Source: a virus. Taken from it: DNA of 35,588 bases. The position numbers were made by a program, and so were the translations under genes. The stretch is from the IMG/VR virus record IMGVR_UViG_3300032132_000023, positions 1 to 35,588 of that record; one strand, given 5' to 3'. Shown in pieces: positions 2 to 31,110 of this stretch (the stretch's first letter is position 1; each line of letters begins with the position of its first letter). A model generated the notes under the pieces. It saw only the letters and a list, made by a program, of their open reading frames with translations. It had not been told where the DNA came from and did no database searches.

Positions 2-139
2 GATGCGCTTGGCTGGAAATGGGAAAGCTATGCAACAATAGAAGGTAACAAAGTAATACATTCGGAAAGTAAAGACGTTTGGTCGGCGTATGAAATAGTT
101 AAAATTAAATTACCAAAAATGGAGACTAGGGATGTTTAA
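2..139 (+). CDS. C-terminal fragment of an unidentified protein (5' end outside window)
   Basis: An open frame enters from the left edge and ends at a TAA at 137-139, giving the last 45 residues of a protein whose start lies outside the window. The visible part is charged and Trp/Lys-rich, with no motif I recognise. Its stop overlaps the start of the next gene by 8 bases (ATGTTTAA), the tight coupling seen across this arm, which supports it being a real gene tail. No function can be assigned. Confidence 0.6.
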   Translation, partial: DALGWKWESYATIEGNKVIHSESKDVWSAYEIVKIKLPKMETRDV

Positions 140-14162: not shown

Positions 14163-14408
14163 CTAAAATTCAAGTTCATACCATTCACTAACCGTACCCC
14201 AAGGTATTATCATGGGGGTATTGATCGTATCCTTTTCCTTATTGTATAGATCTGTAGCTAAAATAATACATTCGTTAGTCGTACCTATAAGGTAACCTAT
14301 GGTTTTCCTAAGAACCGGAGAAAGTTTTTTGGCGTCCTTTAAAGAATAATCTGCTGTTTCAATCCAGGCATCTCCCCAATGCACTTCAACAATTGAGAAA
14401 TCATCCAT
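14163..14408 (-). CDS. small phage protein, beta-rich, unknown function
   Basis: An 81-residue protein whose start overlaps the stop of the holin-like gene by one base (TAATG). The pattern 'VEVHWGDAWIE' then 'VGYLIG-like' strand, 'CIILATDLY' and a final 'MIIPWGTVSEWYEL' is common among small phage proteins of unknown role. Their aromatic VxWxD start and PxGxIxxxxxL ending are typical. No enzymatic motif is seen. Confidence 0.6.
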   Translation of the reverse strand: MDDFSIVEVHWGDAWIETADYSLKDAKKLSPVLRKTIGYLIGTTNECIILATDLYNKEKDTINTPMIIPWGTVSEWYELEF

Positions 14409-14791
14409 TATTTTTTACCTATAAATTTTGCTGCACCTCTAAACCCAAAACTTGCCGCTACAATAGTGCCTAGCAAATACTGATACCATTCAGGACAGTT
14501 ACTGAGAGCTACAAAGAAATTATTAACCCTTTCTTCTTCTCCAAATAACAATAAAATTAAGGGTAACGTAAAGACCACAGTAAGCCATTCGTCTTTCCAT
14601 GAAGTCTCGCTAGCTTTTGCTTGGGCAACGTCCCAATCGATTTCGCCAGCAGCTTTCTTTTGCATAACAGTGGCTTCTGCCTCTGCCTGAGCAACTTTAA
14701 CTTTAGTGTTGGCCCTTATCTTTTCGTTGCGGCCCTCAAGCCAACTCGAAGCTATCGCACCTAGCGGATTTAATATTGCACTAAGAAGCAT
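14408..14791 (-). CDS. holin of the 3TM type (gene-transfer-release family)
   Basis: A 127-residue membrane protein with three hydrophobic segments: residues 1-17, about 69-84 (EWLTVVFTLPLILLLF) and 103-124 (WYQYLLGTIVAASFGF). A charged coiled region lies between the first two. GEIDWD...SWKDEW and CPEWYQYLLG match the pattern of the 3TM holin family (PF11351-like). It would form membrane lesions that let the endolysin reach the wall at the end of infection. A strong GGAGGTGA ribosome site precedes the ATG. The endolysin gene is nearby, upstream in the same operon, forming a lysis cassette. Confidence 0.75.
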   Translation of the reverse strand: MLLSAILNPLGAIASSWLEGRNEKIRANTKVKVAQAEAEATVMQKKAAGEIDWDVAQAKASETSWKDEWLTVVFTLPLILLLFGEEERVNNFFVALSNCPEWYQYLLGTIVAASFGFRGAAKFIGKK

Positions 14792-14957
14792 CTTCTGTCA
14801 CCTCCTGCATTTCAATAGTACCTAATATAAAAGATTGCTGCTCTTCAAAAAGTTCTCTGAAATCCTCTAACCTCATAAAACCTACCCCAGCCCTACTCTG
14901 GTGCTTAGCATAAATTCCATACAGAACCTGTAGTTGTTCTTCAGTATAAAGAAGCAT
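14781..14957 (-). CDS. small hypothetical protein between endolysin and holin
   Basis: A 58-residue protein. The start at the complement of 14955-14957 is preferred because its ATG overlaps the endolysin stop (TAATG) and GGAG lies just upstream. A longer form beginning at 14975 is possible but less likely. It is acidic, with LYTEEQLQVLYGIYAKH at the start, and has no membrane segment. It overlaps the holin gene by 11 bases. Confidence 0.55.
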   Translation of the reverse strand: MLLYTEEQLQVLYGIYAKHQSRAGVGFMRLEDFRELFEEQQSFILGTIEMQEVTEDAS

Positions 14958-15325
14958 TAGTAACTCCACACCCAAGGTCTAGGACGTTCTGGAGATTCTT
15001 CAATGTCATCTATATGTATGAACCTAGAATCCCCCTTTTGGTTAACTCCAATGCCTGTGAAACCTGCCTTCAGAGCGCCCCTAAGGAGCTTGTAGGCGTT
15101 TTCTCCGTACACTGATACATCGATAGCCCTTCCTGTCGTATGAGCGCCTACAGTGTATTTTTCAATTTCTATAGGGTGCTTCGTACACCTGTATCCAGAG
15201 GTCACAATAAACGGAAACCCCAGTTCTTCTCGTAAGGCTTCTATTTTTTTCATGAAGTTTATATTCATACCTTCTTTATTGCAGTGACTGCATTTTAATT
15301 CAGCCGCTGTGAAATATTTAAACAT
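14957..15325 (-). CDS. M15-family peptidase endolysin (D-Ala-D-Ala/L-Ala-D-Glu-type carboxypeptidase)
   Basis: A 122-residue zinc peptidase that should cleave peptide bonds in peptidoglycan. The M15 motifs are TSGYRC (residues 42-47), GAHTTGRAIDV with H62 and D69, and FIHID with H104. Together H62, D69 and H104 make the Zn site. The N-terminal 'F-x-AAELKCSHC' segment is the usual start of the M15A endolysin-like subfamily. There is no signal peptide, so it needs the holin gene 166 bases further downstream to reach the wall. Length fits the compact phage form. Exact bond specificity cannot be read from the sequence. Confidence 0.88.
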   Translation of the reverse strand: MFKYFTAAELKCSHCNKEGMNINFMKKIEALREELGFPFIVTSGYRCTKHPIEIEKYTVGAHTTGRAIDVSVYGENAYKLLRGALKAGFTGIGVNQKGDSRFIHIDDIEESPERPRPWVWSY

Positions 15326-15340
15326 TAGTTATCACCCATG

Positions 15341-15670
15341 TTAAACCGCAAAAGAACTTCCGCATCCACAGGTTGTTTGTACATTTGGATTGCGAATTAT
15401 AAATTGAGATGAAAAATGGTCGGAAGAATAATCAATCTCAGCACCATTTAAATACTGTAGACTCAATGGGTCTACTACTAATGTAATACCATCCGTTGTG
15501 ACAGCTTCATCATCTTCCTTTTTATCATCAAAGGTAAAGCCATACTGGAATCCTGAACATCCTCCACCCTGTATAAACACACGCAAAGTTATATCTTCCG
15601 AAATATCGGGGTCTTCGTGCATAATTTCTTTTACTTTCTTAGCAGCAGCGCTGTGGAATGTTACGCTCAT
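15341..15670 (-). CDS. A-type Fe-S cluster carrier (ErpA/IscA/HesB family)
   Basis: A 109-residue protein strongly resembling bacterial ErpA. The three cluster-binding cysteines are C38 (GGGCSGFQYGF), C101 and C103 (TCGCGSSF), and the VVDPLSLQYL core is also present. Such proteins carry Fe-S clusters from the assembly scaffold to client proteins. As a phage gene it is an auxiliary metabolic gene. It lies in the late operon between a secreted protein and the endolysin, with AAGGAG before its ATG. Likely clients include host Fe-S enzymes or the phage's own Cas4-like nuclease (8540-9400), which is inference. All key residues are intact. Confidence 0.93.
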   Translation of the reverse strand: MSVTFHSAAAKKVKEIMHEDPDISEDITLRVFIQGGGCSGFQYGFTFDDKKEDDEAVTTDGITLVVDPLSLQYLNGAEIDYSSDHFSSQFIIRNPNVQTTCGCGSSFAV

Positions 15671-15686
15671 TATTTAAACTCCTTAA

Positions 15687-16001
15687 TTAAACAGCACACT
15701 GCAAAGCTATCAAATTTATTACCATAATACCTTTGTAGCCTTTAGCTTCTAACTGAGCTATAAGTTTACTAGCTTCTAAAATTTCTGCCTTTCGTGCATT
15801 GTATTGTGCCGTCGTGATTTTATTTTTTCTAAGCCTATCATTTAAGAATACTCTCCATTTACCAATTAAAACATCTCTGTTTTCAGTAGAAACTAAAACC
15901 TCTGCAAACTTAATAATATTAGTACATTTAGATGGGGGCAGAGATGGGGCCGCAACCGCCCTCTGTATAAATAAAAGAAGTATTAATAGAAGTATTTTCA
16001 T
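15687..16001 (-). CDS. small secreted/periplasmic protein, unknown
   Basis: A 104-residue protein with a clear N-terminal signal: a Lys, a run of Leu/Ile (residues 3-11) and a likely cleavage after AVAA near residue 18. The mature part has two cysteines (about 26 and 102) that may form a disulphide in the periplasm. It also has a helical charged middle (WRVFLNDRLRKNK). Its start overlaps the end of the giant virion protein gene by 4 bases (ATGA). Near the endolysin and holin it could be a lysis accessory protein, but no lipobox or spanin pattern is evident. Function unknown. Confidence 0.6.
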   Translation of the reverse strand: MKILLLILLLFIQRAVAAPSLPPSKCTNIIKFAEVLVSTENRDVLIGKWRVFLNDRLRKNKITTAQYNARKAEILEASKLIAQLEAKGYKGIMVINLIALQCAV

Positions 16002-19000
16002 CTGCCAATATGAAGACCTGTAGTTCTAATATCAGTTGCAGGAGAACCACGATTAGGATTAAAGGCGTGTGCCGCCGATGCGATTGTCGAGCGATTCATA
16101 CCTTGAGGGCTGTTAAATACATATTGCTCACCCAAGCCGTAGCCATACAGACCGCCCCCAATGGCTCCACCTACCGCTCCTGCCCCCGCTATCGACTTAT
16201 TAAGAGCGCCTAATAGCTTACCACCAAACGCACTACCGAAAGCACCTAATGCTATATCGAAAGTATCACCCCCTCTCAACGCAGCCCCAGTAGCGCCCAT
16301 AGCGCCTTTCACTAGTGGCCCTCCCGGTACAAAAAAAGATCCTATTTGCAACGCTATACCTAATGCATCCTTAATGCCAAATTTACGTTTCGGTCGTTGA
16401 TTTTTCCATTGCGCTCCCCGCATCGCGGCATCCATTGCTTCAAATTTGTCCCAATCACTAGCGGTTTCCGGCGTTACACCAAGCCGAGTAAAAACATCTA
16501 ATGCTGTTTGGCCTTGATAATGGGATCTCCACTCCGGGCGCGACCAATAAGCATCAAAAATAGCGGCACCAGCCTTTTCGTCAATTGCTCGCTCAAGCCC
16601 AGATCCAAATTGATTAACATTATAGCGCCGGTATCCTTGATCGTTACGGGTCGGAAAATAGCCGGGGTTGATCCACCCTTCTTCACCGAAAGCCACATTA
16701 CTCGTCCTTAATCCTATAGCTCCCGGCGCTACCCTGTAGGCACCGAAATACCGTCTATCGTTACCCGTAAGGTGAGCGTGACGTCCCACATTCGCAGCGG
16801 CCTGCATCTCGTTTTGCCACTGTGGATTTGCAAGTGTTTCCCCATATTGAGCTTGCACCCACTGCGGACTACCAATAGGAGCCTCTGAAGTCGCTGTAGC
16901 CTGGACTTCGGCAGGAGTTCTATTCAATCCTTCCGTCAATCTGGCATGATCATCCGAAGCAGTACTAACCAGTTCATTCCATACGGAGTCATCAGCATAG
17001 TTAACAGAGGTAGTAGTGGGGACGTCAGTAACGGTAGTAGTAGTGGGGACGTCAGTAACGGTAGTAGTAGTCGGGACGTCAGTAACGGTAGTAGTAGTGG
17101 GGGTAGTAGCAACAGGAGTAGTACCTTCCAATCCTCCCATCATTTCTGCATAGTGGGCGCGTAGAGCGGGGTCACTTATCGTATCTAAAAGTGTATTACC
17201 TAAAGCTTCGCCACCTTCATTAAATTGTACTCTTCCACCTTTCCCATGTAGATACCGTACACTACTTTCTAGCTTATCTCCTGCTGAAGTCTTTAAAGGA
17301 TAAGGAGCTTCTGCTTTCTTCCAATATTTAACACCTTTAGCATAGACCCTATCTCCAAAAACAGTAGCGATGTCTGCGCTTTGTACGGCCTGACCAGTTT
17401 TTTTATCAATAAAAAGATGTTGGTCGGCTGGATTCACGCCTATTTCAACAACATCATCGTCCATTTCTTTTAGTACATTTCTCATTGTCGTGTAGTTACC
17501 ATCTACAGACATAGCAGGATTTTTAGTTTGAGCTTCAGGTACTTCGAATTTTTTTATCTTAGCAGCGATGTTTACCCTTCTTTGTTGACTAACGGAAAAC
17601 ATAGCATCCGTTAAAGTTACATGTGGAGCATAAGACAAAACTTGTCCATCATAATTTTTTTCGTGTATTGTTTGAAGTTTAAAAGCGCGGTCCCCCATTT
17701 TCTCAGCTAATTCAGGATATAGGGTTTTGTCAAATGAAGAGTTTAGATTTAATCTAGCTGCAATAAAAGTACCCTCTTCTACAGGAGCCATAATAAGTTT
17801 ATTAGCTTTTTTAGTTCCTGCTTTTGCTGTGCCTACTAAAGACTCTAACTCTTCTATGTCTTTAACAGAATAATTTTTTAATTTAGAACCATCAGTTAAA
17901 GACGCATCAGCACCTATGTCTAAGGGTGGCGTTATTGTCTCCTCATTGCGTTTCAGGACTCTGGCGCGTTTGGCTAAGTCATCGAATAGCACCATGTTAC
18001 GGGTGTCTTTTTTCCGCAGCGTTTTAGCAATTTTACCCCATTGATGTTTCTTAATTCCGCCTCGACTTCCTTGATCGTAGTATTTGATGCCGGGGATGCC
18101 AGCCTTTTCTAAAATGGAAGACGCTTCTTTGTCACTAAAGAACCCACTTAATTCGTCGTAAATTTCTCGACCCGTCTTGTTTTCTAGCGGGTATAGGTGC
18201 TTCGTATCTCTTTCCAGTTTCGCTTGTAGCGCCCCCATATTTTCCCGCACACTCTGCGGTTGCTCACTAAACGGCGCATCCCAATCCAGCATCTTGGCCA
18301 CATCTTCATCGGGGATATCTATTTCGTAGAGGAAGCTGCCCGGTTGAGTAGACAATCGTTCGAAATCAAATTGTTCAACAATTTCACGATCTTGTTTACT
18401 ACCTTTAATAAACTCATCAAAAAAATCAAGAGCGGCATTTCTGACATCACTATCGGGTAATCCCTGCCTTTTACGCAACCGGCCAATATCCAAAGACAAC
18501 CCTGCTGGGCCAAATTCATCAACAAAAGAAGTAATTTTTCGCCCATCCAAAAATACAGTCGCGTCGGTTTGTAACGCTTGCTCGTAGAAACCCGCCACTT
18601 TAGGGTCCTGCGCCACATACATTCCATGTCCGAATTTTTTTTCGCCCTCGCCTGTCCCTATCTTGGAGGGATCTAGGGCTTCAAATTTATGCGGTGAACC
18701 GTGATAGGTAACCTGAGTACGTGCAGCAGTGCTATACGGATTTAGATCTGATGTCTCACGCCCCACACCTCTAGTCTCACGCCCCACACCTCTAGTCACA
18801 AGCCTTGAAATAAGAGATCCTGCACCTAAGCTTTGACGCTGCCCACCTCCCGAAAACCCAAGCCTTACTAGTGGGTCTACCGAACCACCACCTACAAAAC
18901 CAAGGCGTCTTAGTGGGTCATCATCAGCACGAAACGCTCCACCGGCTTCGTCAACAAAACGCTCACCCGTATATGGGTTTCTGCGGTCCTCTGGTCTCTC

Positions 19001-22000
19001 TACCGCATTACGCACATCCACCTCTCCACCAGTAGCAAAAGTACGGAATCTATATATACTAGGATCTGCCTTTCCTTCTGACCCACTTGAGCCTCCCCCA
19101 TTTGGCTTGTCTTCTAAATAAGGCATCCCCCACTCTCTAGAATAGCGGTTAAGCTCGTGAGCAATCGGTATAACATTAACAATGTCTTGTCCAAAACCTT
19201 CGATATCCCCGCCAGCAAGATTTTCTATAGCATCTCCAAAACCTTTAAGAACATCGTTAGCATAACTTAACGCAGGACTTGCGGCTTCCGTTATACCCTC
19301 ACCCCTTTTGAAATTATATTTCCAAGCGGACCCCGCCTTAACAGCCCACCAAGGTAAGAGTTCTCCGCTAAGTTCAAAAGTTTTCTTTAAAGAAGTTGGT
19401 AAATCCTTATCAGGGTCATATGACGGCTTAGTAACATCGCGTAAGAACTGAACGGAGCCAGTACCAATAACAGTTGCTCCTAACATTCTAACTGCTAACT
19501 TAGCATCGCCATCTTCAATGCGCTTAATAAGTGCGTTTGTTTGAGCCGTTTTAGCCTGTGTCCAAGACATGAATTGACCAAACGATCTGATAAAAGGATC
19601 TCTATGTTGTGTAAAAAGAAGCCTGTTACCAACTTTAGGAACAAGACGGTCTCTATCCATAGCCTTTTGACCTGCTCTAGTAAGGATCTCTCTTCCTGTA
19701 TCATCACCAAAAGCCTCTTCTGCGCTTTTAAACCTAGCTAAGTTTGACAAATCATCCTCTTGTAGTCCTAATTCTCTTAGCTCTCTTCCTAAAGCTTTAG
19801 ATATTTTAGGATTTTTTATGAGTTGTTCTGAAATCTCAAAAGCTCTGTAAGCTCCTACGTCAAAAGCATATTTACCAGCAGCCTCCGTTACCATCTTTAA
19901 TCCAGTAAGCCTAAAGAAGCCCCTCTGCATATTGTTTAATTTTTGAGTGGTTGATTGCAGCGGGTCCACTGAATGCACCATTAAAGCACTTAATTCTAAC
20001 TCAAAAGAATTGTCGTATTGAAGACCAGCCCTTTTGTGCAACGCACCACCTGGCTGGAATCTCCCTGTAATTCCTTTAGTTGCTGCTGCAAACGTAGATG
20101 TTTTCCACGGAGAAATAAAATCTGCTAGTGATGTTATACCTACTCTGGTTAAATACATCATATTTGCAAGACCAACTAAACTCTTAGTTGCCATAGAAGC
20201 TAGAGGTTGCGTCCCATGCCAAGCATCTCCGTACTTACCAAAAAAAGCATTAACAGTATCTTTCATAGCATTTTTATATGCTAAATGAGAGTCACTGTTG
20301 CGTACACCCTTAAAAGCTTGGTTGACATCAGCAAAGGCTTGGTCTAAAAGTTCTCCGTTAGGACCAAACGTACTTGCAAATTCTCGTATTTTTATAGTCT
20401 TATCTGCGTAAGTATAAAAAACATCTAAAGTATCTAATTCTAGAAAACCCGCTTCAGCTAATGCTTTCCGCACATCATCATCTTTTATAAATCTTGTCTT
20501 TTCAAAATGATCTAAAAGTGGGCGAATTTTAAAATTATCGCCAACAATTTTTTCCTCGTTAAAACGTGTTTTAATTCTGTCTTGGCTAAGACCCTTCATA
20601 AACATTTTTTCGTACAATTTTTCAACTTCACTATCTATCTTTTTTTCAGATAGTTTTGAGTCTTTAAATTCTCCCTTTTTAAATTGTTCTCGTATAATGT
20701 CTTTAAACTTTTGTGGGTCTCTTGTAATTGCCTCATAGTTATAAAGCTGTGGCATTCCGTAGTTTTCTATTTCATCAAAGTCAATCTTAACGGCTTTAAC
20801 ACTTTTTGCTAACGCATCTCTTTGTTGTTTAAGTAATGGAACAATACGCATAACCTCATCTAATTGTGCTTGAGATAAACCAGTTTCTAAATCACCCGCT
20901 AGTCCTTTGTAACCCACAGTCGGCCTTACATAACCTACCATATGTTCAAAATTTATCATTTCACCAGCAACTTTTCGTACAGCTTTATCGCCAAACGAGT
21001 CACCTAGCGAAGCTCCTAGTTCTCGCAAATACTCAGTTATGGCTACATAAGACCTATGCTCAACAGATTTAGTACCGCCCCCAGGTCGATCTAATAATAG
21101 ATTTGCTACTATCTTACCGGCACCCCCCAATGAATCTAGCTTAGTACTTGCCGTAGCAGATGTCAGAAATTTTAGATAAGTAGAGGACAGCCCTTTCTTC
21201 CATTCCTTATTAACAATTAACATTCCAGTTTTTTTATCGTAGTGAGAAATATCTGCCTTTTGAATCATTCTTTGCCATCTCATTAGACCAGCGCCGGTCA
21301 CCATAAAACCAACGGTAGCTCCCCACTCATCATCGTCGTCTAAGAAAAAATGGCTGGCAGTATACCCACCAAGCGCACCAAAAGCAGGTCGTGTTCCTTC
21401 TCGTATTAAATATTCTAAAGTACCTGCTGTAATTTTATCGTCTTTTATAGCCCTGTCGAATATAGATTCAGTTAAATCGTGACCATCCATACCTCGATTA
21501 ATTACATGTTGTTTATTTTGTAATCTTAAGTTGTTATAATCACGAGTTAGGCCACTTAATTCTTGTCGCGCTGTCTTTAGTTCGCCTTCTATTATTTTTT
21601 GTTCTGCTTTTTCAGCTTCAGTTAAAGCATTCACATTTTTTATTTTAGGAATTTTTGCTGTTAACTCAGCTATCTCATCAATTTTTTCTGTTCTTAACTT
21701 TCCTATCTTTGCCATATCGTCTATTATTTCTGCATCAAATAAAGGATCAACATCAAATTTAGAACCTGCCCTAGCCACTTCTTCCGCAGCAACAGTATCT
21801 ACATAGTCAATGGTCTCACGGCTTACCTGATAGGGTTTCCCGACTGAATTAGTTCTTAAATCCTCAAGTTCTAAACTAGCTTTTTTGGGGTCGGTTTTTT
21901 GGGGCGGGAACGTTGTCTTTTTTGGTACAATTTCAGGACCATCAAGAACTACATCTCCACTTTTAGAAGCATAATCTATTGCGTCTATAGCAGATTTACC

Positions 22001-23137
22001 TTCAGCTATACTTTCTCTTACAGTCGCAGAAGTATCATCGGCTACCTGCTGGTCTCGACCGCCTCTTGACTTAATAAATTTAGTACCAATCCAATCCGAT
22101 AAAGCTGAACTGGAGCCGCCAAGAGCTGCCGCAACACCAATCATAGTGGGGTCAACCTCTTGTTGATGAACATGTCCCCAAAGAGCGGCGTCTGCTGCAC
22201 CAAAACCACCGCCAACGCCAATACTTACAACCTTTCCAGCCTTAGCAATTTTTGTCCAAGGCACCAATAGTGTAATAGGGTCTAAAAGAGCAACGCCCAT
22301 ACGCCCAGCAAGCATTCCTAAATCTTCGTCGTACAAACTAACGCCACGAAACTCTGGATACTCTTCAAGAAATTCTCTTAGTTCTTGCTCATTAATATCA
22401 GCTAGTTTTTGTTTGTATGTTTTATTTGTACTGATAGCAGATAGACCTGCCGCTTTTGTTACAGTCCAGATGTTACCGAAAATTGTTTTTTCTTTTGCCC
22501 ACCCAGCACTCATTCTTCTTGCGAGAGGGATATCTTCTAAAGCCGGTGCAGAAAGAGGAGTAGAGTACAAAGAATAATCTATATTAGAATGTTCGATTTC
22601 AAAGTGTCCTAGAGGAGTAACAGGTTTATGTTCGGGAACAACTAGAGCTGGCCTTTCTTTAACTGAATCCAACGCCGCCAATACTTTAGGAATATAAGCG
22701 CGTGTTTCTGCGTTTAAGTCGTTGAGGTCAGCGCCAGCATCGATCCACTTATCTGTCTTTCCCGGCCCCTGATTATAAGCAGCAATAGCATATATAATAT
22801 TGCCATCGTACTTTTCAACCATAGCATTAAGATAGTCTTTACCAACGCGGTCTACTTCTTCAATACTATCATCTTTTGCAGGAAGTACACCATAGCCCGG
22901 ATCACCAGCAGTAGCTAACATTACTTGTCGCCTACCCCTAGCCCCAGATTTAGGATTAATTGCAAAAGGATCTCCACCGCTTTCTACTTGTATAACTGCT
23001 CGGTGTAGTGGGTCTGTTTCTATAGGAAGACCCGTTGAATCTGGTGTAGAGCTTTTAGAATCACGATAGACAATTGGCAAAAAAGGTTCTTCATCTCTAT
23101 CTGAATCAAAAGGTGTGTTGTAGTTTAAATCCCGCAC
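15998..23137 (-). CDS. giant virion protein: lytic transglycosylase, membrane-active body, ADP-ribosyltransferase-like and polyvalent-type domains
   Basis: A 2379-residue protein, probably the internal/ejection protein equivalent to T7 gp16. Residues about 41-160 are a lytic transglycosylase domain (E52 in QVESGGDPFA, GARGRRQVM near 65-73, AYNQGPG at 120-126, YIPKVLAAL near 148). Gly/Ala-rich hydrophobic stretches near 272-350, 585-615 and 980-1025 could insert into membranes. Residues about 1475-1725 match an ADP-ribosyltransferase-like domain of polyvalent proteins: TYHGSPHKF with H1479, FGHGMYVAQ with Y1507 and a closing GIKYYDQGSRG...NMVLFDD. Residues about 1780-1930 resemble a second polyvalent-associated domain (VEEGTFIAARLNL...VVEIGVNPADQHLF...TGQAV). 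A Thr-rich linker (about 2012-2043) and a Gly/Ala-rich end follow. The start is GTG 23137 after GAGGAAA. Confidence 0.85.
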   Translation of the reverse strand: MRDLNYNTPFDSDRDEEPFLPIVYRDSKSSTPDSTGLPIETDPLHRAVIQVESGGDPFAINPKSGARGRRQVMLATAGDPGYGVLPAKDDSIEEVDRVGKDYLNAMVEKYDGNIIYAIAAYNQGPGKTDKWIDAGADLNDLNAETRAYIPKVLAALDSVKERPALVVPEHKPVTPLGHFEIEHSNIDYSLYSTPLSAPALEDIPLARRMSAGWAKEKTIFGNIWTVTKAAGLSAISTNKTYKQKLADINEQELREFLEEYPEFRGVSLYDEDLGMLAGRMGVALLDPITLLVPWTKIAKAGKVVSIGVGGGFGAADAALWGHVHQQEVDPTMIGVAAALGGSSSALSDWIGTKFIKSRGGRDQQVADDTSATVRESIAEGKSAIDAIDYASKSGDVVLDGPEIVPKKTTFPPQKTDPKKASLELEDLRTNSVGKPYQVSRETIDYVDTVAAEEVARAGSKFDVDPLFDAEIIDDMAKIGKLRTEKIDEIAELTAKIPKIKNVNALTEAEKAEQKIIEGELKTARQELSGLTRDYNNLRLQNKQHVINRGMDGHDLTESIFDRAIKDDKITAGTLEYLIREGTRPAFGALGGYTASHFFLDDDDEWGATVGFMVTGAGLMRWQRMIQKADISHYDKKTGMLIVNKEWKKGLSSTYLKFLTSATASTKLDSLGGAGKIVANLLLDRPGGGTKSVEHRSYVAITEYLRELGASLGDSFGDKAVRKVAGEMINFEHMVGYVRPTVGYKGLAGDLETGLSQAQLDEVMRIVPLLKQQRDALAKSVKAVKIDFDEIENYGMPQLYNYEAITRDPQKFKDIIREQFKKGEFKDSKLSEKKIDSEVEKLYEKMFMKGLSQDRIKTRFNEEKIVGDNFKIRPLLDHFEKTRFIKDDDVRKALAEAGFLELDTLDVFYTYADKTIKIREFASTFGPNGELLDQAFADVNQAFKGVRNSDSHLAYKNAMKDTVNAFFGKYGDAWHGTQPLASMATKSLVGLANMMYLTRVGITSLADFISPWKTSTFAAATKGITGRFQPGGALHKRAGLQYDNSFELELSALMVHSVDPLQSTTQKLNNMQRGFFRLTGLKMVTEAAGKYAFDVGAYRAFEISEQLIKNPKISKALGRELRELGLQEDDLSNLARFKSAEEAFGDDTGREILTRAGQKAMDRDRLVPKVGNRLLFTQHRDPFIRSFGQFMSWTQAKTAQTNALIKRIEDGDAKLAVRMLGATVIGTGSVQFLRDVTKPSYDPDKDLPTSLKKTFELSGELLPWWAVKAGSAWKYNFKRGEGITEAASPALSYANDVLKGFGDAIENLAGGDIEGFGQDIVNVIPIAHELNRYSREWGMPYLEDKPNGGGSSGSEGKADPSIYRFRTFATGGEVDVRNAVERPEDRRNPYTGERFVDEAGGAFRADDDPLRRLGFVGGGSVDPLVRLGFSGGGQRQSLGAGSLISRLVTRGVGRETRGVGRETSDLNPYSTAARTQVTYHGSPHKFEALDPSKIGTGEGEKKFGHGMYVAQDPKVAGFYEQALQTDATVFLDGRKITSFVDEFGPAGLSLDIGRLRKRQGLPDSDVRNAALDFFDEFIKGSKQDREIVEQFDFERLSTQPGSFLYEIDIPDEDVAKMLDWDAPFSEQPQSVRENMGALQAKLERDTKHLYPLENKTGREIYDELSGFFSDKEASSILEKAGIPGIKYYDQGSRGGIKKHQWGKIAKTLRKKDTRNMVLFDDLAKRARVLKRNEETITPPLDIGADASLTDGSKLKNYSVKDIEELESLVGTAKAGTKKANKLIMAPVEEGTFIAARLNLNSSFDKTLYPELAEKMGDRAFKLQTIHEKNYDGQVLSYAPHVTLTDAMFSVSQQRRVNIAAKIKKFEVPEAQTKNPAMSVDGNYTTMRNVLKEMDDDVVEIGVNPADQHLFIDKKTGQAVQSADIATVFGDRVYAKGVKYWKKAEAPYPLKTSAGDKLESSVRYLHGKGGRVQFNEGGEALGNTLLDTISDPALRAHYAEMMGGLEGTTPVATTPTTTTVTDVPTTTTVTDVPTTTTVTDVPTTTSVNYADDSVWNELVSTASDDHARLTEGLNRTPAEVQATATSEAPIGSPQWVQAQYGETLANPQWQNEMQAAANVGRHAHLTGNDRRYFGAYRVAPGAIGLRTSNVAFGEEGWINPGYFPTRNDQGYRRYNVNQFGSGLERAIDEKAGAAIFDAYWSRPEWRSHYQGQTALDVFTRLGVTPETASDWDKFEAMDAAMRGAQWKNQRPKRKFGIKDALGIALQIGSFFVPGGPLVKGAMGATGAALRGGDTFDIALGAFGSAFGGKLLGALNKSIAGAGAVGGAIGGGLYGYGLGEQYVFNSPQGMNRSTIASAAHAFNPNRGSPATDIRTTGLHIGR
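17009..17101 (-). repeat. 27-bp tandem repeat encoding a TTTTVTDVP linker
   Basis: Three near-identical copies of a 27-bp unit encode TTTTVTDVP in a row inside the giant virion protein (about residues 2012-2043), with partial Thr-rich units on each side. It separates the polyvalent-type domains from the Gly/Ala-rich C-terminus and reads as a flexible, possibly length-variable linker. Confidence 0.85.
18754..18795 (-). repeat. perfect 21-bp tandem duplication
   Basis: Two identical 21-bp copies stand side by side (18754-18774 and 18775-18795), encoding RGVGRET twice. They lie just before the ADP-ribosyltransferase-like domain of the giant virion protein. A perfect match suggests a recent slippage event in an inter-domain linker. 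Confidence 0.9.
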
Positions 23138-23149
23138 AGATAATTTCCT

Positions 23150-26125
23150 CTATGGGGCTGGCCTAGAAAGTAAGGAATTTTTTTCAATTCCAGCAGCCTT
23201 GTATAGCCAACCAAGATCGATGTTTTCTAATTTCGCATCAATAAATTTAAGTGCATTTATTAGCTTAATATTATTAGCCTTAGTCCAACTATTTAGTGTC
23301 TTAATAAAATCCTGAGTAAGCAAGCCTCTATTTTCTCCCGGTTTTTGAGTTTGAACTCCGTAAAGATTAGATAATTCCTTAGCAACTATTGTTGCTTCCG
23401 CTAAAACATTACCTACATCCGCAGCAACCAGTTTTCCCTCCTCATAAAGATCGCCAGTGTGTCTGGCTACATCCTTAGCAACCAGTTTTCCCTCCTCTAG
23501 AAGACTACCGCCGTGTCTGGCTACATCCGCAGCAACCAGTTTTCCCTCCTCTAGAAGACTACCGCCGTGTCTGGCTACATCCGCAGCAACCAGTTTTCCC
23601 TCCTCTAGAAGCTGGTCAGTGTGGAAGGATACATCCTCAGCAACCAGTTTTCCCTCCTCTATAAGCTGGTCAGTGTGGAAGGATACATCCTCAGAAATGT
23701 TTCTTAGTTCATCAACAACTTCTTCTGTAGAATCCGGGGCAGCGGTTGTCGTTTGAGGCCACTCTACTGTCGACACGACTCCACTCTCTAGATAGTCGCT
23801 TATAAGTTTTGGCGCAACGATTTGAAGAGACTCTTGCCTTGTCATTCCCTGCTCTCTAAATTTCGACACCTTAGCCTGATCATCTTCGGACAGACTGTCT
23901 ATTATCGTTCTTAGGTCACGATCCCTCAGAAAAACCGACCGCGCTCTTTTTATAACGGAGCCTATCGGATTTAACTCTGTAGGCAGAGTATCGCGTAGTC
24001 TGTCTAAGATCCGAGGTGGTAGCTCTTCTACCTGACTCCTAGTTAAGTTTGCAAAATCCCCATCCTTTTGAAACTCTGGATGGCTTTTCATAAGTATGTC
24101 TATCGCACTTACAGATGTGACTTCTTCAGCGGGTTTCCCTACTTCATCGGGTTTCTCTACTTCATCGGGTTTCTCTGTAGCCTCAGTGGTCCATATTTCG
24201 GGACTAACTGGGATGTTCATATTAGGATCTTCTTGTCGTGCACCGTATATTCGATCTGTATTTGTCACTATATCTGGACCCGTAGGTAAACCCAAGGCAC
24301 GGGCTGTACGAATCTCTAATTCTTTTATATCCGTTAATTGATTTATATGGAGCCGCCCACCGTTAGCTTGTATATCTACTTGATCAAGTAGACCAGGATT
24401 ATTTTTGTCGCCTGAAGATATACTCTGGCTCAGTGCGAAATTTTTAGCTTGTAACTCCTTTCCAGGAGGTATCTTTCCAGCACTAATTTGAGCATTAATA
24501 TTATTTTCAATTGTCGCTAAAAAGTTTTCTTCGCCTTTAATATTAATGAATCTTGGATTATAGAAACCTCCAGGATGAACCGCGTCTCTGTTGTAAAAAG
24601 CATGTGTGGTGGCGCTAAGAGTTGATTTATCTGGGTCAACATTCCAGACACCTATAGTAGAGTCTTCTACCCCCTTCCCAAATTCTCCTATCAAGAAATT
24701 TACTCCAGCTTTTCGGTCAGCAATGCCCACACCACCGCCAATTAGTGGAGAGGGAGATCCAATCATAGTAAAAAGCCAATCCGGCCCCATACGATCTTTA
24801 GCTACTCCATCTATCTGCGTTATATTTTTGCGTAAGTTAAAGTCTACATATTTTTCATACATATCGGCTACTTGGGGTTTAGTTAACCGTATATTTAGTT
24901 TTGATTCGCCTAAAGCTTGGAGTGTGTCTGCTTTAAAGTTCGCCCCTAAATGCTTTATCATTTTTGCTTCTTCGGCCATAACTGTTTCTAGTTGTTTAGT
25001 CGTTAAGTCTTTATGGTCCTCCTGATCAAATAGTTGTGCTGAAAATAAATCACGAAATGTTTTCATCGTATCCGAGTTATTAGGACCATAATTTATATTT
25101 ATAAATCTTAATGCGTCTTCATCAGTAGGCAACATAGTAGTATGGTAAGCCAGATAAAACTCTTGTGGATTTTTTGCTTTTTGTCCATCAGTAGAATTTA
25201 CAAAGCTTACAAGAGCAGGGTTATAATCTTTTGGATTTTCTATAATCTTGGCTCGATGAGTCGTTATTGCCACTTCTTGCGCCCTCCTCTTCGCCCCGCC
25301 CCCATACGCCTGCGCCCAGTTCGGGTTTGTAACAGCATAAGCATCAAAAGCTTTTTCCATCGCAGATGAGTTAGGACGAACACCAACTTCTCGAAGCCAA
25401 GTAGCAGTGTCTCCTGCATGGTCACCACCTAAAAAAGCCTCAACATCAGCATTTGAATATTTATGTGCGTCTTCTCCAAAAAGAATATATTTTAAACCGT
25501 CTGCTTTATAATCATCTACTGTTTTATCTGGGTCCACAGAAGCTTTTATTCGTGTCCAAAATTTTTGCACACCTGTATCACCGTACCAACCCGCTTTTTC
25601 TGCTCTTTTTTCTAATTCCTCATATGTAGGCGCATCAGTTACCATCTTTCGATACTTATAAAATTTCTTTAAATAAGCATCTCCCTCAGCTTTAAACGCC
25701 CCCTTATTTTTTTGATCTCCTAAAAACATCGCTACTAAAGAATCTTTATCTTCACGACCTTGAAACTCTGCTTCAAGCTGAGTTTTATAAGTCTCCTCCA
25801 TTATTGATTGAGCATTTTGAGAAGGAGTTTTATTATTTTTAAAAAGGTTGGTTTCTACCGCCGCTACTTGCTTTCGTATTGCTTTGAGTCCACGAGTTCC
25901 TCGCACAGCTTGTCTACCTTGTGCAGTTTCAAAAAAATCTTTGTCGTTACCTAGAAAAATACCTTTTCCTAATTCTGTAACTCCTTCTGAAATAGCACCA
26001 ACAACCGGCTGCGCCGCTGCAACCAGCAAAGTCTGCTGCCACCAAGGCATACTTTGCCGCCGCCTGTACTGCGACTCCGCTCCACTAGCGAAAAGACCCC
26101 CTATTCGTCCAGTTCCAAATGGCAT
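23150..26125 (-). CDS. large virion protein with 18-residue repeats
   Basis: A 991-residue protein encoded directly upstream of the giant transglycosylase protein, in the place of T7 gp15-type internal virion proteins. The N-terminus has a short hydrophobic stretch (WWQQTLLVAAAQPVVGAI, residues about 28-45). The body is long, charged and mostly helical, with no enzymatic motif I recognise. Near residues 810-900 five copies of an 18-residue repeat (for example EDVSFHTDQLLEEGKLVA) and a sixth degenerate one occur. A role in the ejection channel or tail is likely from context only. Just before the repeats a 'TEKPDEVEKPDEVGKPAEE' linker is seen. The gene starts within the stop of its upstream neighbour. 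Confidence 0.75.
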   Translation of the reverse strand: MPFGTGRIGGLFASGAESQYRRRQSMPWWQQTLLVAAAQPVVGAISEGVTELGKGIFLGNDKDFFETAQGRQAVRGTRGLKAIRKQVAAVETNLFKNNKTPSQNAQSIMEETYKTQLEAEFQGREDKDSLVAMFLGDQKNKGAFKAEGDAYLKKFYKYRKMVTDAPTYEELEKRAEKAGWYGDTGVQKFWTRIKASVDPDKTVDDYKADGLKYILFGEDAHKYSNADVEAFLGGDHAGDTATWLREVGVRPNSSAMEKAFDAYAVTNPNWAQAYGGGAKRRAQEVAITTHRAKIIENPKDYNPALVSFVNSTDGQKAKNPQEFYLAYHTTMLPTDEDALRFININYGPNNSDTMKTFRDLFSAQLFDQEDHKDLTTKQLETVMAEEAKMIKHLGANFKADTLQALGESKLNIRLTKPQVADMYEKYVDFNLRKNITQIDGVAKDRMGPDWLFTMIGSPSPLIGGGVGIADRKAGVNFLIGEFGKGVEDSTIGVWNVDPDKSTLSATTHAFYNRDAVHPGGFYNPRFINIKGEENFLATIENNINAQISAGKIPPGKELQAKNFALSQSISSGDKNNPGLLDQVDIQANGGRLHINQLTDIKELEIRTARALGLPTGPDIVTNTDRIYGARQEDPNMNIPVSPEIWTTEATEKPDEVEKPDEVGKPAEEVTSVSAIDILMKSHPEFQKDGDFANLTRSQVEELPPRILDRLRDTLPTELNPIGSVIKRARSVFLRDRDLRTIIDSLSEDDQAKVSKFREQGMTRQESLQIVAPKLISDYLESGVVSTVEWPQTTTAAPDSTEEVVDELRNISEDVSFHTDQLIEEGKLVAEDVSFHTDQLLEEGKLVAADVARHGGSLLEEGKLVAADVARHGGSLLEEGKLVAKDVARHTGDLYEEGKLVAADVGNVLAEATIVAKELSNLYGVQTQKPGENRGLLTQDFIKTLNSWTKANNIKLINALKFIDAKLENIDLGWLYKAAGIEKNSLLSRPAP
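23425..23694 (-). repeat. five tandem 54-bp repeats (18 residues each)
   Basis: The same 19-base block recurs at 23425, 23479, 23533, 23587 and 23641, exactly 54 bases apart. Units starting at 23479 and 23533 are almost identical over their whole length. The repeat encodes a heavily charged amphipathic unit ending in EEGKLVA. Exact spacing and local identity point to recent expansion by slippage or recombination. Confidence 0.95.
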
Positions 26126-26634
26126 TATTGTTCTCCTTTTTGTGATCTACTCATAAGTGAAGGCGCTGCTTTAATTTTTTCAGCCATAGGAGATTCCTCA
26201 TCATCCTCTGGATTTTCTATAGTTTGTAATTTAGCTCTAAAAGTATTATTTTCTTGTTCTTCTTCATCATTGATAATAACAGCTTTAATTCCTTCTTTCT
26301 CAGATAAACCAAGTAATATATATGCTAAAGGCTCAGCTAATAGTAACATCATGTCTGGATTTATTTCTCCGTCTTCAAAGCTTTTTGTTAGAATAACTTG
26401 AACAATATTCATAACAGGAACCCCGTCAGCTAAAAGACCCATGAAGGCATCAAAATTTTCTTCAGCAGTAATTAGCTTAAAATAATAATCAAGGGCTTCG
26501 TTCCTTGATGTAAATTCTGGAGGCCCTTCATAAGACGCAGGAGCTTCTGGATTATTTGTTAATGATTGCCCAGGAATCGGTCTATTAGTCCGAGTTGAAA
26601 ACTCTCTTGTATTTTCACTATCTAAAAATGCCAT
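26125..26634 (-). CDS. 169-residue virion-region protein, unknown
   Basis: A 169-residue acidic protein. It starts with a polar arm containing IPGQSLTNNPEAPASYEGPPEF. A helical core then covers about residues 42-105 (EALDYYFKLI, FDAFMGLLADGVPVMNIVQVIL, PDMMLLLAEPLAYILLGL). The acidic tail runs through ENPEDDEESP. The PxGxSLT...P..yE.PP...eA pattern is known to me from marine phage structural regions, but no function is attached to it. AAAGGA precedes the ATG. It overlaps the start of the 991-residue gene by one base, so the two are probably made together. Confidence 0.65.
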   Translation of the reverse strand: MAFLDSENTREFSTRTNRPIPGQSLTNNPEAPASYEGPPEFTSRNEALDYYFKLITAEENFDAFMGLLADGVPVMNIVQVILTKSFEDGEINPDMMLLLAEPLAYILLGLSEKEGIKAVIINDEEEQENNTFRAKLQTIENPEDDEESPMAEKIKAAPSLMSRSQKGEQ

Positions 26635-28200: not shown

Positions 28201-31110
28201 CTAGGGCGCGAATATAATGTCTTCAAGTTCGTTAGTTATCGCTATCGCCTCGTCTTTGTCCTCTTTCATAAAAACTGTGTTTCCATATATGGACGACGCT
28301 ATTTGCATAGCCCTTTCTCTTGCTGACTGATTAGCTGCGTGAGAAAAGGCTGCGGTATCTCTTAAACTTTGCCATATTTGATTTTGTTCCGCACTCGACA
28401 TATTAAAAGCAAATTGAGACGCTTGTTGATTCGCAGCATTCTGAGCCGCTGTCCCTATTGTATTAGCCTGTCTCCTCCAAGCAATATTAGATTGTTCAAC
28501 GGCTTGTGCATTTTGAGCATTCCATTGGTCTGTTTTAAATTCTAAGTCTTTGTCAAACATATTTACTCTAGTAATTAAATCATTATTAAATTTTTGAGCG
28601 TCCAAATCGTTTTGATTTTCTATCGCTTCCATACGATTAGCTTCTGCCGAGTTGAACTGAACCATAGCGTTTGATTGGCTAGTATTAAACTGCTCTATCT
28701 GCTGCGCAAGATTTTGCATAAATTGATTCGTTTGATTTTCTGATGTTGCATTAAATTGTTTTGAAGCATTTGTAGCTGCTTGGTCAGAAAGCATTCTTTG
28801 TTGTTCCATTTGTTGATCAAGAACAGTACTCTGTTGCCTGTTGTTTAAATTAGCCATATCCATCTGTAAGAAGTTCTGTGCGTTGGTGATCGCTAATTTA
28901 GTTCGCTGGTCAGCCGCCGCTAAATCCATAGATGCCATAGTCGTAGCATTTTGAATTGCACTTTGTTGCCTTGCATTAAAATCTGTTACAGTCATAGACT
29001 GCATAAACTTACTATTAGCTATTTCTACTTGCTGAGCAGCATTAAATTTAGACATGTCTATATTAGCAACTGTAGCTGCATTAGTTACAGCTCTTTGCTG
29101 GTCAACATTTAATTGAGCAATGCCCATTTGCTGAGATATATTAGCCTGTAGTAGATTTGTTTGCATTCTTGAATTTAGATTTGCAAGTTCCGTTTGTTGG
29201 GAGGCTGTGAGATTTTCTGAAGATGCTTGATTTAGTGATGATAAATTAGCGAGTCTCATTTGCTGATCATTAGAAAGGTTTGCGAGACCCATCTGCTGTT
29301 TAAAACCAGCATTTTTTGATAGGAAGTCTGCGGCTATCTGCATCTCTGCAAGCTTTTCTTGATTCTCAGCGGATTGATCTGCACCTGCCCTTTCAGCCTC
29401 GACTTGCAAGTTAGCCATTGCCATCTGCTGCTCGTTGCCTAAATTTTGAACATTCATAGCTTGTTGGTTTTGTACGTTAAGTACAGCGGCCTGCTGTCGA
29501 TTCTGCAAGTTTTGTAGTGATGTCTGCTGCTGCTGCTGTGCCGTAAGCATTACACCTTCTTGTTTAAACTGACTCTGCATGACTTTCATTTGTTGTGACA
29601 TCTGCGCAGATTGTGATTCAGAAGTTTGACGATTAGCAAGATTTGCCATACGCCGCTGCATATCTTGAGTAGATTGTGCTAGATTGGCCTGCTGTTCATT
29701 AGACAGATTCTGTGCTGCACGTTGCTGTAAGGCTTGGGCATTATTCTGTGCTATTGGTAAAGCACTTTGAATAATTGCGTTAAATAAAGCATCCCTTCCT
29801 ACAGAAGAAACTGATAAGCCTCTTTCTACCATTTGCTGATTAATTGCATCTACAGCAGGCTTAGCCCACGCAGGAGTTTTGCCTTCATCCATACCCGCAA
29901 GAAGACCTTCTATTTGAGAAGATACCAAGGCTTCTGTAGGTAATGCGGCAACCGCTGCTTGAACTTCCACAGGCTGGTCATCTATTTGGGCTGTTACAGA
30001 GGCGGGATTTTCTACAATAGCTGCTGAAATATCGGGTGGTAAAGCACCAGTTTCGGCAAGCATAGACGCTGCCGCAGCAGTTGCAGCAGTTCCTGTTACA
30101 GCCCTACGCTGAGAAGCTTCGTAACCTACTGTATTTATAATTTCTGCGGCTTGTCCGGTAGTAGCAGCCGTACCTGTAAGAGCTTCACGTTGTAATTTTT
30201 CAGCTTCTGGAGTTGCAGATACCGTAACGGTTGTTCCCGTGACTTGATCTACAGCCGACTTAGTATCTACTACAAACTCTGCTGCTTGAGCTTTTGCAGC
30301 CTGTTCCTGTGCTGTATCTCTTTGTGCCGTTTGTACTTTAGAAGCGTCTGTAAATGCAGGGCCTGCTGCCGTTGCTTCCCCGCTCGTTACCGTTCCTTGT
30401 GCGGCTATTGTAGGGTCTACCCCAACTGCGGCGGCGGCGGTATATTTCTCAGCGGTCAAGGCGTCCTGTTTTTTAGCCTCACCAGCATCTCCCGCTGTTA
30501 CAGTAAGGTCTCCAGCAACAACACCAGCAGCAGGTTTATCAGTAGCCACGCGATCCTTTATTTCCTGCGTTACCGTAGACTGAATATTAGGGTCTGCCCC
30601 AGTGTACGCAACACCAGTCGATCCACTATCCGGTACAGTTGCAGTGCCTGCCACTATTACCCCTCCGTTTGCTGCACCGAGGTCTCCTCCTCCTCCTTGT
30701 CCTCCTCCCTGTCCTTGGTTTCCTTCTCCCTGTCCTTGGTTTCCTCCTCCCTGCCCTTGGTTTCCTTCTCCCTGTCCTTGGTTTCCTTCTCCCTGTCCTT
30801 GGTTTCCTCCTCCCTGTCCTTGGTTTCCTCCTCCCTGTCCTTGGTTTCCTCCTCCCTGTCCTTGGTTTCCTCCTCCCTGTCCTTGGCCTCCTCCTCCTTG
30901 ATTTCCAGTTCCAGTTGTAGCAGTGCCCCCTAGAGAGGCCAGATAGTCCATGTAGGATATAAACTCCCCTGTCGCTGTATTAGTAAAGCCACCGGGAGCT
31001 GCCGTGTGGCCCGCTGGTAAACCAAAGCCGCCACCTTGAAATTTCTTACGGTCTACATAACCGCCCTTACGAAAGTCAGCCCGATTCTTTAGCGCTCTTA
31101 TTCTAGACAT
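28201..31110 (-). CDS. Gln/Asn-rich coiled-coil virion protein with 44 eleven-residue repeats
   Basis: A 969-residue protein in three parts. Residues about 1-70 are basic then Gly-rich. At about 73-136 a low-complexity tract carries eight NQGQGGG/NQGQGEG units. A Thr/Ala/Val-rich region (about 150-450) has no recognised domain. From residue 457 to 940 the chain is an unbroken run of 44 eleven-residue repeats such as NLSNEQQANLA and NLNNRQQSTVL, often Asn first, Gln at 6-7 and Ala/Leu/Phe last. Such hendecads make right-handed coiled coils. The short charged C-terminus ends in ELEDIIFAP. Context says a structural tail or ejection component; function is not known. Its start overlaps the preceding one-TM gene by 8 bases. 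Confidence 0.75.
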   Translation of the reverse strand: MSRIRALKNRADFRKGGYVDRKKFQGGGFGLPAGHTAAPGGFTNTATGEFISYMDYLASLGGTATTGTGNQGGGGQGQGGGNQGQGGGNQGQGGGNQGQGGGNQGQGEGNQGQGEGNQGQGGGNQGQGEGNQGQGGGQGGGGDLGAANGGVIVAGTATVPDSGSTGVAYTGADPNIQSTVTQEIKDRVATDKPAAGVVAGDLTVTAGDAGEAKKQDALTAEKYTAAAAVGVDPTIAAQGTVTSGEATAAGPAFTDASKVQTAQRDTAQEQAAKAQAAEFVVDTKSAVDQVTGTTVTVSATPEAEKLQREALTGTAATTGQAAEIINTVGYEASQRRAVTGTAATAAAASMLAETGALPPDISAAIVENPASVTAQIDDQPVEVQAAVAALPTEALVSSQIEGLLAGMDEGKTPAWAKPAVDAINQQMVERGLSVSSVGRDALFNAIIQSALPIAQNNAQALQQRAAQNLSNEQQANLAQSTQDMQRRMANLANRQTSESQSAQMSQQMKVMQSQFKQEGVMLTAQQQQQTSLQNLQNRQQAAVLNVQNQQAMNVQNLGNEQQMAMANLQVEAERAGADQSAENQEKLAEMQIAADFLSKNAGFKQQMGLANLSNDQQMRLANLSSLNQASSENLTASQQTELANLNSRMQTNLLQANISQQMGIAQLNVDQQRAVTNAATVANIDMSKFNAAQQVEIANSKFMQSMTVTDFNARQQSAIQNATTMASMDLAAADQRTKLAITNAQNFLQMDMANLNNRQQSTVLDQQMEQQRMLSDQAATNASKQFNATSENQTNQFMQNLAQQIEQFNTSQSNAMVQFNSAEANRMEAIENQNDLDAQKFNNDLITRVNMFDKDLEFKTDQWNAQNAQAVEQSNIAWRRQANTIGTAAQNAANQQASQFAFNMSSAEQNQIWQSLRDTAAFSHAANQSARERAMQIASSIYGNTVFMKEDKDEAIAITNELEDIIFAP
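28291..29742 (-). repeat. hendecad array: 44 consecutive 33-bp (11-residue) units
   Basis: I laid out residues 457-940 of the 969-residue protein in rows of eleven and found no insertion or deletion in 44 rows. Examples are NLQNRQQAAVL, NLSNDQQMRLA, NLTASQQTELA, DFNARQQSAIQ and NSAEANRMEAI. The last position turns from Ala/Leu to Phe in rows 30-36. DNA copies are diverged, so the register is held at protein level. Confidence 0.9.
30703..30892 (-). repeat. 21-bp repeats encoding NQGQGGG/NQGQGEG
   Basis: Eight tandem 21-bp units encode the heptapeptide NQGQG(G/E)G, flanked by shorter Gly/Gln-rich bits. The DNA units differ by a few bases (the Gly/Glu change is a single base). This is a low-complexity, slippage-prone, Gly-rich linker near the N-terminus of the 969-residue protein. 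It also creates long Pro/Leu-rich false ORFs on the + strand. Confidence 0.95.

What the first reader, a model, noticed from the sequence alone, without database searches (positions are those of the whole stretch)
15998..23137. Ejection-type virion protein fused to an ADP-ribosyltransferase-like domain and a second polyvalent-type domain
Seen: one 2379-residue frame has an N-terminal transglycosylase (E52), hydrophobic Gly/Ala-rich segments, then H1479 (YHGSP) and Y1507 (GMYVAQ) with a closing YYDQGSRG...VLFDD, the pattern of the ART-PolyVal family. A further region (1780-1930) reads like a domain that often accompanies it in polyvalent proteins. Known: T7 gp16-type proteins enter the cell with the DNA, T4 packages and injects the ADP-ribosyltransferase Alt, and polyvalent proteins are thought to protect invading DNA. 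Inference: this protein opens the wall, forms part of the DNA channel and delivers an effector that modifies host targets in the first minutes of infection.
Basis: partly seen in the sequence, partly recalled or inferred. Interest (0 to 1): 0.85.

Follow-up and report, generated by a model that had tools for sequence, protein, structure and literature searches.

The report
Phage injection protein carrying swappable enzyme
A marine phage has fused the large protein that opens the host wall and helps push DNA into the cell to an ADP-ribosyltransferase-like enzyme and two further modules, and in its relatives the same fusion site carries other enzymes or none, so the injection protein looks like a delivery arm with an interchangeable payload.

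Summary
One intact 2379-codon frame (minus strand, 15998-23137) holds a transglycosylase (45-135), a gp16-like body (about 200-1345), an ART-fold domain (1470-1736), a second domain of polyvalent proteins (1737-1970, Phage_L5_gp82-like) and a C-terminal module (2103-2379) that is a separate gene in other phages. The ART domain belongs to a family found in at least 590 viral contigs, usually as its own gene beside terminase/portal. AlphaFold gives an ART fold; its best solved match is the ART-like part of the cyanophage A4 pre-ejectosome protein (Z 10.6), ahead of diphtheria toxin (8.6). The His is nearly invariant, both diphtheria-type tyrosines are invariant, but the usual catalytic Glu is an invariant Asn. 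The body shares a profile-level segment with T7 gp16 and sits in a gp14-15-16-like gene order. Of 71 distinct C-termini of the body, 28 are short, most ending just after a conserved linker; 42 exceed 200 aa and carry methyltransferase-like, HNH, wall-hydrolase, other ART-like, gp82-like or unidentified parts. Best reading: an ejection protein with a polymorphic effector slot, loaded here with an ART. Packaged ARTs are known; this chassis-and-slot arrangement is a new variant. Activity, target and delivery are untested.

The parts
15998..23137 (-). 2379-aa fusion gene: SLT, gp16-like body, linker, ART, gp82-like unit, Thr linker, C-terminal virion-like module
22733..23005 (-). Transglycosylase SLT domain, residues 45-135 (E52)
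   Evidence: Pfam PF01464 E 3.1e-13
19103..22540 (-). gp16-like body ('chassis'), residues about 200-1345
   Evidence: tblastn to Pelagibacter phages HTVC103P/104P/115P, 27% identity; 179 stretches in viral contigs encode relatives; alignments A7, A9
22067..22312 (-). Segment (residues about 276-357) matching T7 gp16 about 328-417
   Evidence: hhalign score 53.8 vs at most 27.4 for 20 shuffles and 19.0 for the reversed profile
18731..19102 (-). Junction linker (residues 1346-1469) with PEDRRNPYTGERF and DDDPLRRLGFVGGG motifs; relatives without a cargo end just after it; 21-bp tandem repeat at 18753-18804
17930..18730 (-). ART-fold domain, residues 1470-1736 (H1479, Y1507, Y1518, D1620, N1714)
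17228..17929 (-). gp82-like unit, residues 1737-1970, starting PLDIGAD and ending SVRYLHGKGG
   Evidence: PF25735 E 6e-5; 84 ORFs; model pLDDT 91.3; BFVD matches
16958..17227 (-). Gly- then Thr-rich repeat linker (residues 1971-2060)
   Evidence: 27/54-bp tandem repeat at 17003-17123
16001..16831 (-). C-terminal module, residues 2103-2379; separate 366-410 aa gene in other phages
   Evidence: 37-43% identical stand-alone ORFs in L003, L009 and others
23150..26125 (-). Neighbour in gp15-like position (991 aa), no sequence match among relatives
   Evidence: position in conserved block
26125..26634 (-). Neighbour in gp14-like position (169 aa), conserved upstream of the body in relatives
   Evidence: 57 BLAST hits in chassis loci

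Best explanation
The gene encodes a T7 gp16-type ejection protein that has become a delivery vehicle. Proposed mechanism: the chain is packed in the head core. On infection it is threaded through the tail. The N-terminal transglycosylase opens the murein, and the body joins the envelope channel. The C-terminal part reaches the cytoplasm, where the ART domain modifies a host molecule at the start of infection; the target is unknown, with transcription, translation or an NAD-linked defence as candidates. The ART sits in a cargo slot after a conserved linker, followed here by a gp82-like unit. Shown here: domain make-up, ART fold, kept His and Tyr residues, gp16-like synteny and profile match, and the swapping of cargo among relatives. 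Inferred: packaging, ejection, cytoplasmic delivery, NAD chemistry and target.
For: ART family in at least 590 viral contigs, mostly 350-430 aa proteins, seen beside terminase/portal or in the head cassette. Model pLDDT 79.6, 125 residues at or above 90. VIA-align: cyanophage A4 pre-ejectosome Z 10.6, then diphtheria toxin, ParT and others. The A4 chain is identical to phage A-4L gp27. Tyr at Y1507+11 in 68/68 rows tested, the diphtheria-group spacing. Body: profile match to T7 gp16 above all decoys, conserved gene block. Slot: sister L095 has body-linker-gp82 without ART; L088 has a different ART-like sequence; L186 and L188 have none. HTVC103P carries a methyltransferase-like domain plus lysozyme there. 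HNH, glucosaminidase and lysozymes occur elsewhere. 60 of 71 tails hold the linker motif; 23 of 28 short tails have it, 20 of them ending 6-17 residues later. Review: T7 gp16 C-terminal domain is presumed to reach the cytoplasm (PMC8954989).
Against: The catalytic Glu position is Asn in 69/69, so transfer may be absent or unusual. Foldseek alone gave no PDB match below E 0.06. PF18760 and PF25735 are below cut-off for this protein. The body has no PDB sequence match, and the link to T7 gp16 is one 82-column segment plus a weak collinear second one. This ART subtype was found on this chassis only in the window. No proteomics or activity data.
Confidence: 0.66

Rival explanations
1. The ART-fold domain is catalytically dead and serves as a structural or NAD/nucleotide-binding piece of the core or channel; the fusion matters for assembly, not for attacking the host.
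For: Asn at the catalytic-Glu position in 69/69 and Gln for His in 11/73. In cyanophage A4 the ART-like part is resolved inside the packaged core. Chassis relatives without it exist, so it is not needed for ejection.
Against: NAD-pocket His and both Tyr are kept across very diverged members, as is Asp1620 (74/74), which lies after the third long strand, possibly where Arr carries its substitute Asp on the fourth strand (PMC7827354; position inferred). H-Y-phi PARPs lacking the Glu are active mono-transferases (PMC9189837). Replacement by other enzyme-like domains fits a payload better than a scaffold.
Confidence: 0.2
2. The ART acts against host defence (NAD-dependent or nucleotide-signalling immunity, or restriction) rather than on host transcription or translation.
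For: Polyvalent proteins are proposed to protect incoming DNA (PMC5512222). Cargo on this chassis also includes methyltransferase-like and HNH domains. NAD-ADPr systems of phages are linked to defence conflicts (PMC9503650).
Against: No target evidence; T4 Alt, the tested packaged ART, acts on RNA polymerase and other host proteins.
Confidence: 0.3
3. The C-terminal part is cut off at the Gly-Gly linkers during maturation, so the ART is packaged as a separate protein or not delivered by the body at all.
For: The linker motifs and GG motifs flank the modules. Close family members are separate genes. Polyvalent proteins are proposed to be processed by zincin peptidases.
Against: No peptidase was recognised in the window gene. 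GG motifs also occur at protein ends. The fusion itself would then be needless.
Confidence: 0.15
4. Chimeric assembly that joined separate genes.
For: This exact combination was seen once; repeats sit at 18753-18804 and 17003-17123, where assemblies can err.
Against: Reading frame intact through all joins. L088 and L095 from other samples share body-to-gp82 fusions with the same linker and 59-62% identity in the gp82 unit.
Confidence: 0.03

Closest known systems
T7 gp16 (internal virion protein D)
   Same: N-terminal transglycosylase, very large chain, last of a gp14-15-16-like order, profile-level match near T7 residues 328-417
   Different: T7 gp16 is 1318 aa with no ART; most of the body has no detectable similarity
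Anabaena cyanophage A4 (A-4L) gp27, pre-ejectosome, PDB 9k3a (Hou et al. 2025, doi 10.1073/pnas.2423403122; paper not held, seen only as a reference in PMC12810830)
   Same: Large ejection-core protein with an ART-like C-terminal region (1418-1604, Z 10.6 to the model)
   Different: Different ART subtype and no body similarity by sequence; Pfam found no family in it, so no gp82-like unit was seen. Whether its authors call the region an ART could not be checked
Phage T4 Alt
   Same: Head-packaged, injected ART (established; PMC5512222, PMC9503650)
   Different: Free protein, not fused to a DNA-channel protein
Polyvalent proteins and N4-like virion RNAP fusions with ART (PMC5512222)
   Same: Multi-domain late-gene proteins mixing ART, wall hydrolase and accessory domains
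   Different: Carrier here is a gp16-type body with a recurring linker and one variable slot
Stand-alone ART genes such as Sulfitobacter phage phiGT1 gp5
   Same: Same ART family, in the head gene cassette between portal and scaffold
   Different: Separate gene of about 387 aa

Membership tests
ADP-ribosyltransferase superfamily, diphtheria-toxin (H-Y-E) class | ART fold | tested here: met
   VIA-align: DT Z 8.6, ParT 8.4, cyanophage A4 10.6, many ART chains near 7-8; Foldseek top rows are ART chains but E above 0.06
ADP-ribosyltransferase superfamily, diphtheria-toxin (H-Y-E) class | His on strand 1 | tested here: met
   H1479; 62 of 73 relatives, Gln in 11
ADP-ribosyltransferase superfamily, diphtheria-toxin (H-Y-E) class | Tyr on strand 2 with second Tyr 11 residues on | tested here: met
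   Y1507 and Y1518 each 74/74; spacing 68/68 rows tested
ADP-ribosyltransferase superfamily, diphtheria-toxin (H-Y-E) class | Catalytic Glu on strand 5 | tested here: not met
   Asn1714 at the equivalent place, 69/69; equivalence inferred from the motif and the ends of the DT alignment (model 264 to DT 167)
ADP-ribosyltransferase superfamily, diphtheria-toxin (H-Y-E) class | NAD-dependent transfer | not testable with these tools
   needs an assay
Pfam ART-PolyVal PF18760 | Score above gathering cut-off | tested here: not met
   18.4 vs 31.2 bits for the window domain; 6/6 alignment members match at E up to 1, best E 3.8e-6
T7 gp16-type ejection proteins | N-terminal transglycosylase | tested here: met
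   SLT E 3.1e-13; not found at the start of the other fetched chassis proteins by sequence, so not general for this family
T7 gp16-type ejection proteins | Sequence relation of the body | tested here: inconclusive
   82 columns, hhalign probability 64%, clearly above decoys; nothing in PDB sequences
T7 gp16-type ejection proteins | Third of a gp14-15-16 gene order | tested here: met
   Conserved block of 969/492/169/large/body genes in relatives; names by position only
T7 gp16-type ejection proteins | In the virion core and ejected | not testable with these tools
   needs proteomics or cryo-EM
Polyvalent proteins | Several unlike domains in one late-gene protein | tested here: met
Phage_L5_gp82 PF25735 | Score above cut-off | tested here: not met
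   23.3 vs 27 bits for the window; homologues L089, L093, L193 and L212 pass

The most novel reading that the evidence does not exclude
A widespread marine family of gp16-type ejection proteins is a polymorphic effector system: one conserved DNA-channel chassis ending in a conserved linker, to which different phages attach interchangeable payloads (ART-like, methyltransferase-like, HNH, wall hydrolases), often followed by a gp82-like unit, and which delivers them together with the genome.
Probability: 0.5. Interest if true: 0.82.

Novelty: new variant of a known kind. Interest (0 to 1): 0.64.

Why it matters
Head-packaged ARTs are known and predicted to be commoner than T4 suggests, but one survey found ARTs in only about 3% of podoviruses (PMC9503650). 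A short-tailed phage group whose channel protein carries an exchangeable payload would show how such phages put enzymes into the cell at the very start of infection, and would give a fixed landmark (the linker) for finding new early effectors in marine phages. The family has cultured members (HTVC103P, 104P, 115P), so virion content and delivery can be tested directly. It also gives a concrete question on ART chemistry: a large family with an invariant Asn where the catalytic Glu normally lies.

Tried and rejected
Direct scan with the window's body alone found nothing; only a profile from four relatives worked. Single-sequence hhalign of the ART profile against A4 gp27 and the slot domains of L088, L192 and L193 was not significant; only L098 gave support (89%), so those other slot domains are called ART-like from motifs (L088, L191-L193) or from structure (A4) only. 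Similarity of the body to A4 gp27: none. Body profile against PDB sequences: only helical noise. gp82-like model against PDB: no match by Foldseek or VIA-align, so no function can be read from the fold; this does not show that the fold is new. gp82-like unit in bacterial genomes: none confirmed in one scan. Considered: chimeric assembly (rejected, see rivals). A first regex for the linker was too strict and was replaced. The A4 structure paper was not held.

Full report
The observation. The frame at 15998-23137 is on the minus strand, starts with GTG and runs 2379 codons without a stop. The record is a 35,588-base viral contig. A 7.1-kb frame with a Pfam SLT domain at the start (45-135, E 3e-13) is no chance feature. 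The stated residues E52, H1479 and Y1507 are correct.

What phage. The DNA polymerase is nearest to Pelagibacter phages HTVC104P, 103P and 115P (45-50%), and the body of the protein matches one gene in the same three phages at about 27%. A published analysis splits related metagenomic genomes into HTVC103P-type genomes and an uncultured group with G+C 31.9-44.4% (PMC8528129). The window (41.4%) would fit the latter; the host is unknown.

The ART domain. Isolated residues match PF18760 only weakly (E 0.0039, below cut-off), but all six sequences of a first alignment match it. A profile-guided scan found at least 590 viral-contig stretches with relatives. Most of those fetched are 350-430 aa proteins, seen between terminase and portal or portal and scaffold. 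In 74 aligned sequences Y1507 and Y1518 are invariant and H1479 is His in 62 of 73. The 11-residue spacing of the tyrosines is kept in 68 of 68 rows tested. This is the spacing of diphtheria toxin Tyr54 and Tyr65 (general knowledge). AlphaFold gave pLDDT 79.6, with a well-defined core and a poorly defined insertion. Foldseek's best matches were ART chains with poor E-values. VIA-align ranked chain B of 9k3a, the cyanophage A4 pre-ejectosome, first (Z 10.6, 153 residues, 4.5 A), then diphtheria toxin (8.6) and other ARTs. The A4 chain equals Anabaena phage A-4L gp27, 1717 aa; its matched region begins near YHGT and has GSGTYFS. Thus an ART-like fold inside an ejection-core protein has an experimental precedent.

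Catalysis. In H-Y-E ARTs the Glu on the fifth strand is thought essential for NAD cleavage, though Arr uses an Asp on the fourth strand, Tpt1 has H-H-V, and H-Y-phi PARPs are mono-transferases (PMC7827354, PMC9189837). In this family the place before the V-x-F strand is Asn in 69 of 69. An invariant Asp1620 (74/74) lies after the third long strand and could replace the Glu as in Arr. This is inference; activity is not shown.

The second domain. Residues 1818-1933 match PF25735 Phage_L5_gp82 (E 6e-5). The conserved unit is about 1737-1970, starting with an L-x-IG motif and ending VR[YF]..GG in 55 of 57 rows. It occurs in 84 ORFs of the fetched loci, several beside the portal (for example L089; CRP-9 gp54). 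Its partners include a zincin motif (L092), a ParB_N-like stretch (L093, E 0.012) and ART-like domains (L098, L102). The model is confident (pLDDT 91.3, pTM 0.88), has no PDB match, and in BFVD matches phage proteins named PcfJ-like, zeta toxin, ART-PolyVal-like, tail lysozyme and LT_GEWL. A divergent RLDIPAY...NPYRHSYFYD form is related (hhalign 95%).

The C-terminal module. Residues 2103-2379 are a separate gene of 366-410 aa in other phages. Two of these, L003 and L009, also carry the ART in a gene without this module. So the window fuses what others keep apart.

The body and its slot. Profile search gave 179 stretches with relatives, 80 loci fetched, with 71 distinct C-terminal tails. Gene order around the body is conserved. 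The body profile matches T7-type gp16 over 82 columns (score 53.8; 20 shuffled profiles at most 27.4; reversed 19.0) with a weaker collinear second hit. Sixty of 71 tails contain a linker of the type ERIDKMTGxPY; the window has a variant, PEDRRNPYTGERF. Of 28 tails of 140 residues or less, 23 have the motif and 20 of those end 6-17 residues after it; 37 longer tails continue 114-1295 residues beyond it. The added parts include methyltransferase-like domains (HTVC103P, L195; weak Pfam matches), HNH_3 (L248, L214), phage lysozyme, glucosaminidase, phage tail lysozyme, sequences with ART-like motifs (L088, L191-L193) and the gp82-like unit (15 tails). Among the nearest relatives, L095 has linker and gp82 unit with no ART, L088 has a different ART-like domain in the same place, and L186 and L188 have a gp82-like unit but no ART. 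A tandem repeat lies in the window at the body-ART junction and another after the gp82 unit. The same swapping appears in portal-adjacent proteins: L102 and L101 are 86% identical over the rear 567 residues but 34% in front.

Mechanism. T7 gp16 has an N-terminal transglycosylase, and its C-terminal domain is presumed to reach the cytoplasm, where it binds DNA (PMC8954989). By analogy the window protein would carry its rear half, with the ART, into the cell. The polyvalent-protein literature predicts such injected enzymes and reports N4-type virion RNA polymerases joined to ART (PMC5512222). One survey finds ARTs in about 3% of podoviruses (PMC9503650). Packaging, delivery, chemistry and target remain inferred.

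Judgement. Packaged ARTs, polyvalent proteins and domain swapping among ejection proteins are each known. What I did not find described, in a limited library, is a gp16-type family with a fixed linker and one variable cargo site. I rate it a new variant of a known kind.

Noticed in passing
15341-15670 (-): A-type iron-sulphur carrier gene (Fe-S_biosyn, E 2e-20) between the fusion gene and the endolysin; kept in the nearest relatives L186 (86%) and L188 (64%).
   Followed up: partly
14408-15325 (-): Likely lysis pair: M15 peptidase (E 1e-16) and a small membrane protein without Pfam match, conserved after the body gene in many relatives.
   Followed up: partly
23413-23694: 54-bp tandem repeats (about 5 copies) coding LLEEGKLVAADVARHGGS-like units in the gp15-position protein, which otherwise has no sequence match in relatives.
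   Followed up: no
30700-30897: 21-bp repeat, 9.4 copies, coding GGGNQGQ units in the 969-aa neighbour, whose rear part is about 60-65% identical in relatives.
   Followed up: no
31631-35587 (-): Fibre-like protein cut by the window end, with a C-terminal Peptidase_S74 chaperone domain (E 9e-14).
   Followed up: no
L005 (Tunturiibacter phage Tunturi_5), L006 (vir555, Methanomicrobiales virus): The same ART family is inside very large proteins (about 1490 and 1975 aa) next to head or internal virion genes, including in an archaeal virus.
   Followed up: partly
residues 1346-1469 and 1967-1976 of the protein (18731-19102, 17210-17239); ends of gp82 units: Recurrent K/F..GG.[VIL] motifs at module ends in this and many related phage proteins; possible processing or docking site.
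   Followed up: partly
132-974 (+): Gene product 88 family protein (PF17338, E 2e-27).
   Followed up: no
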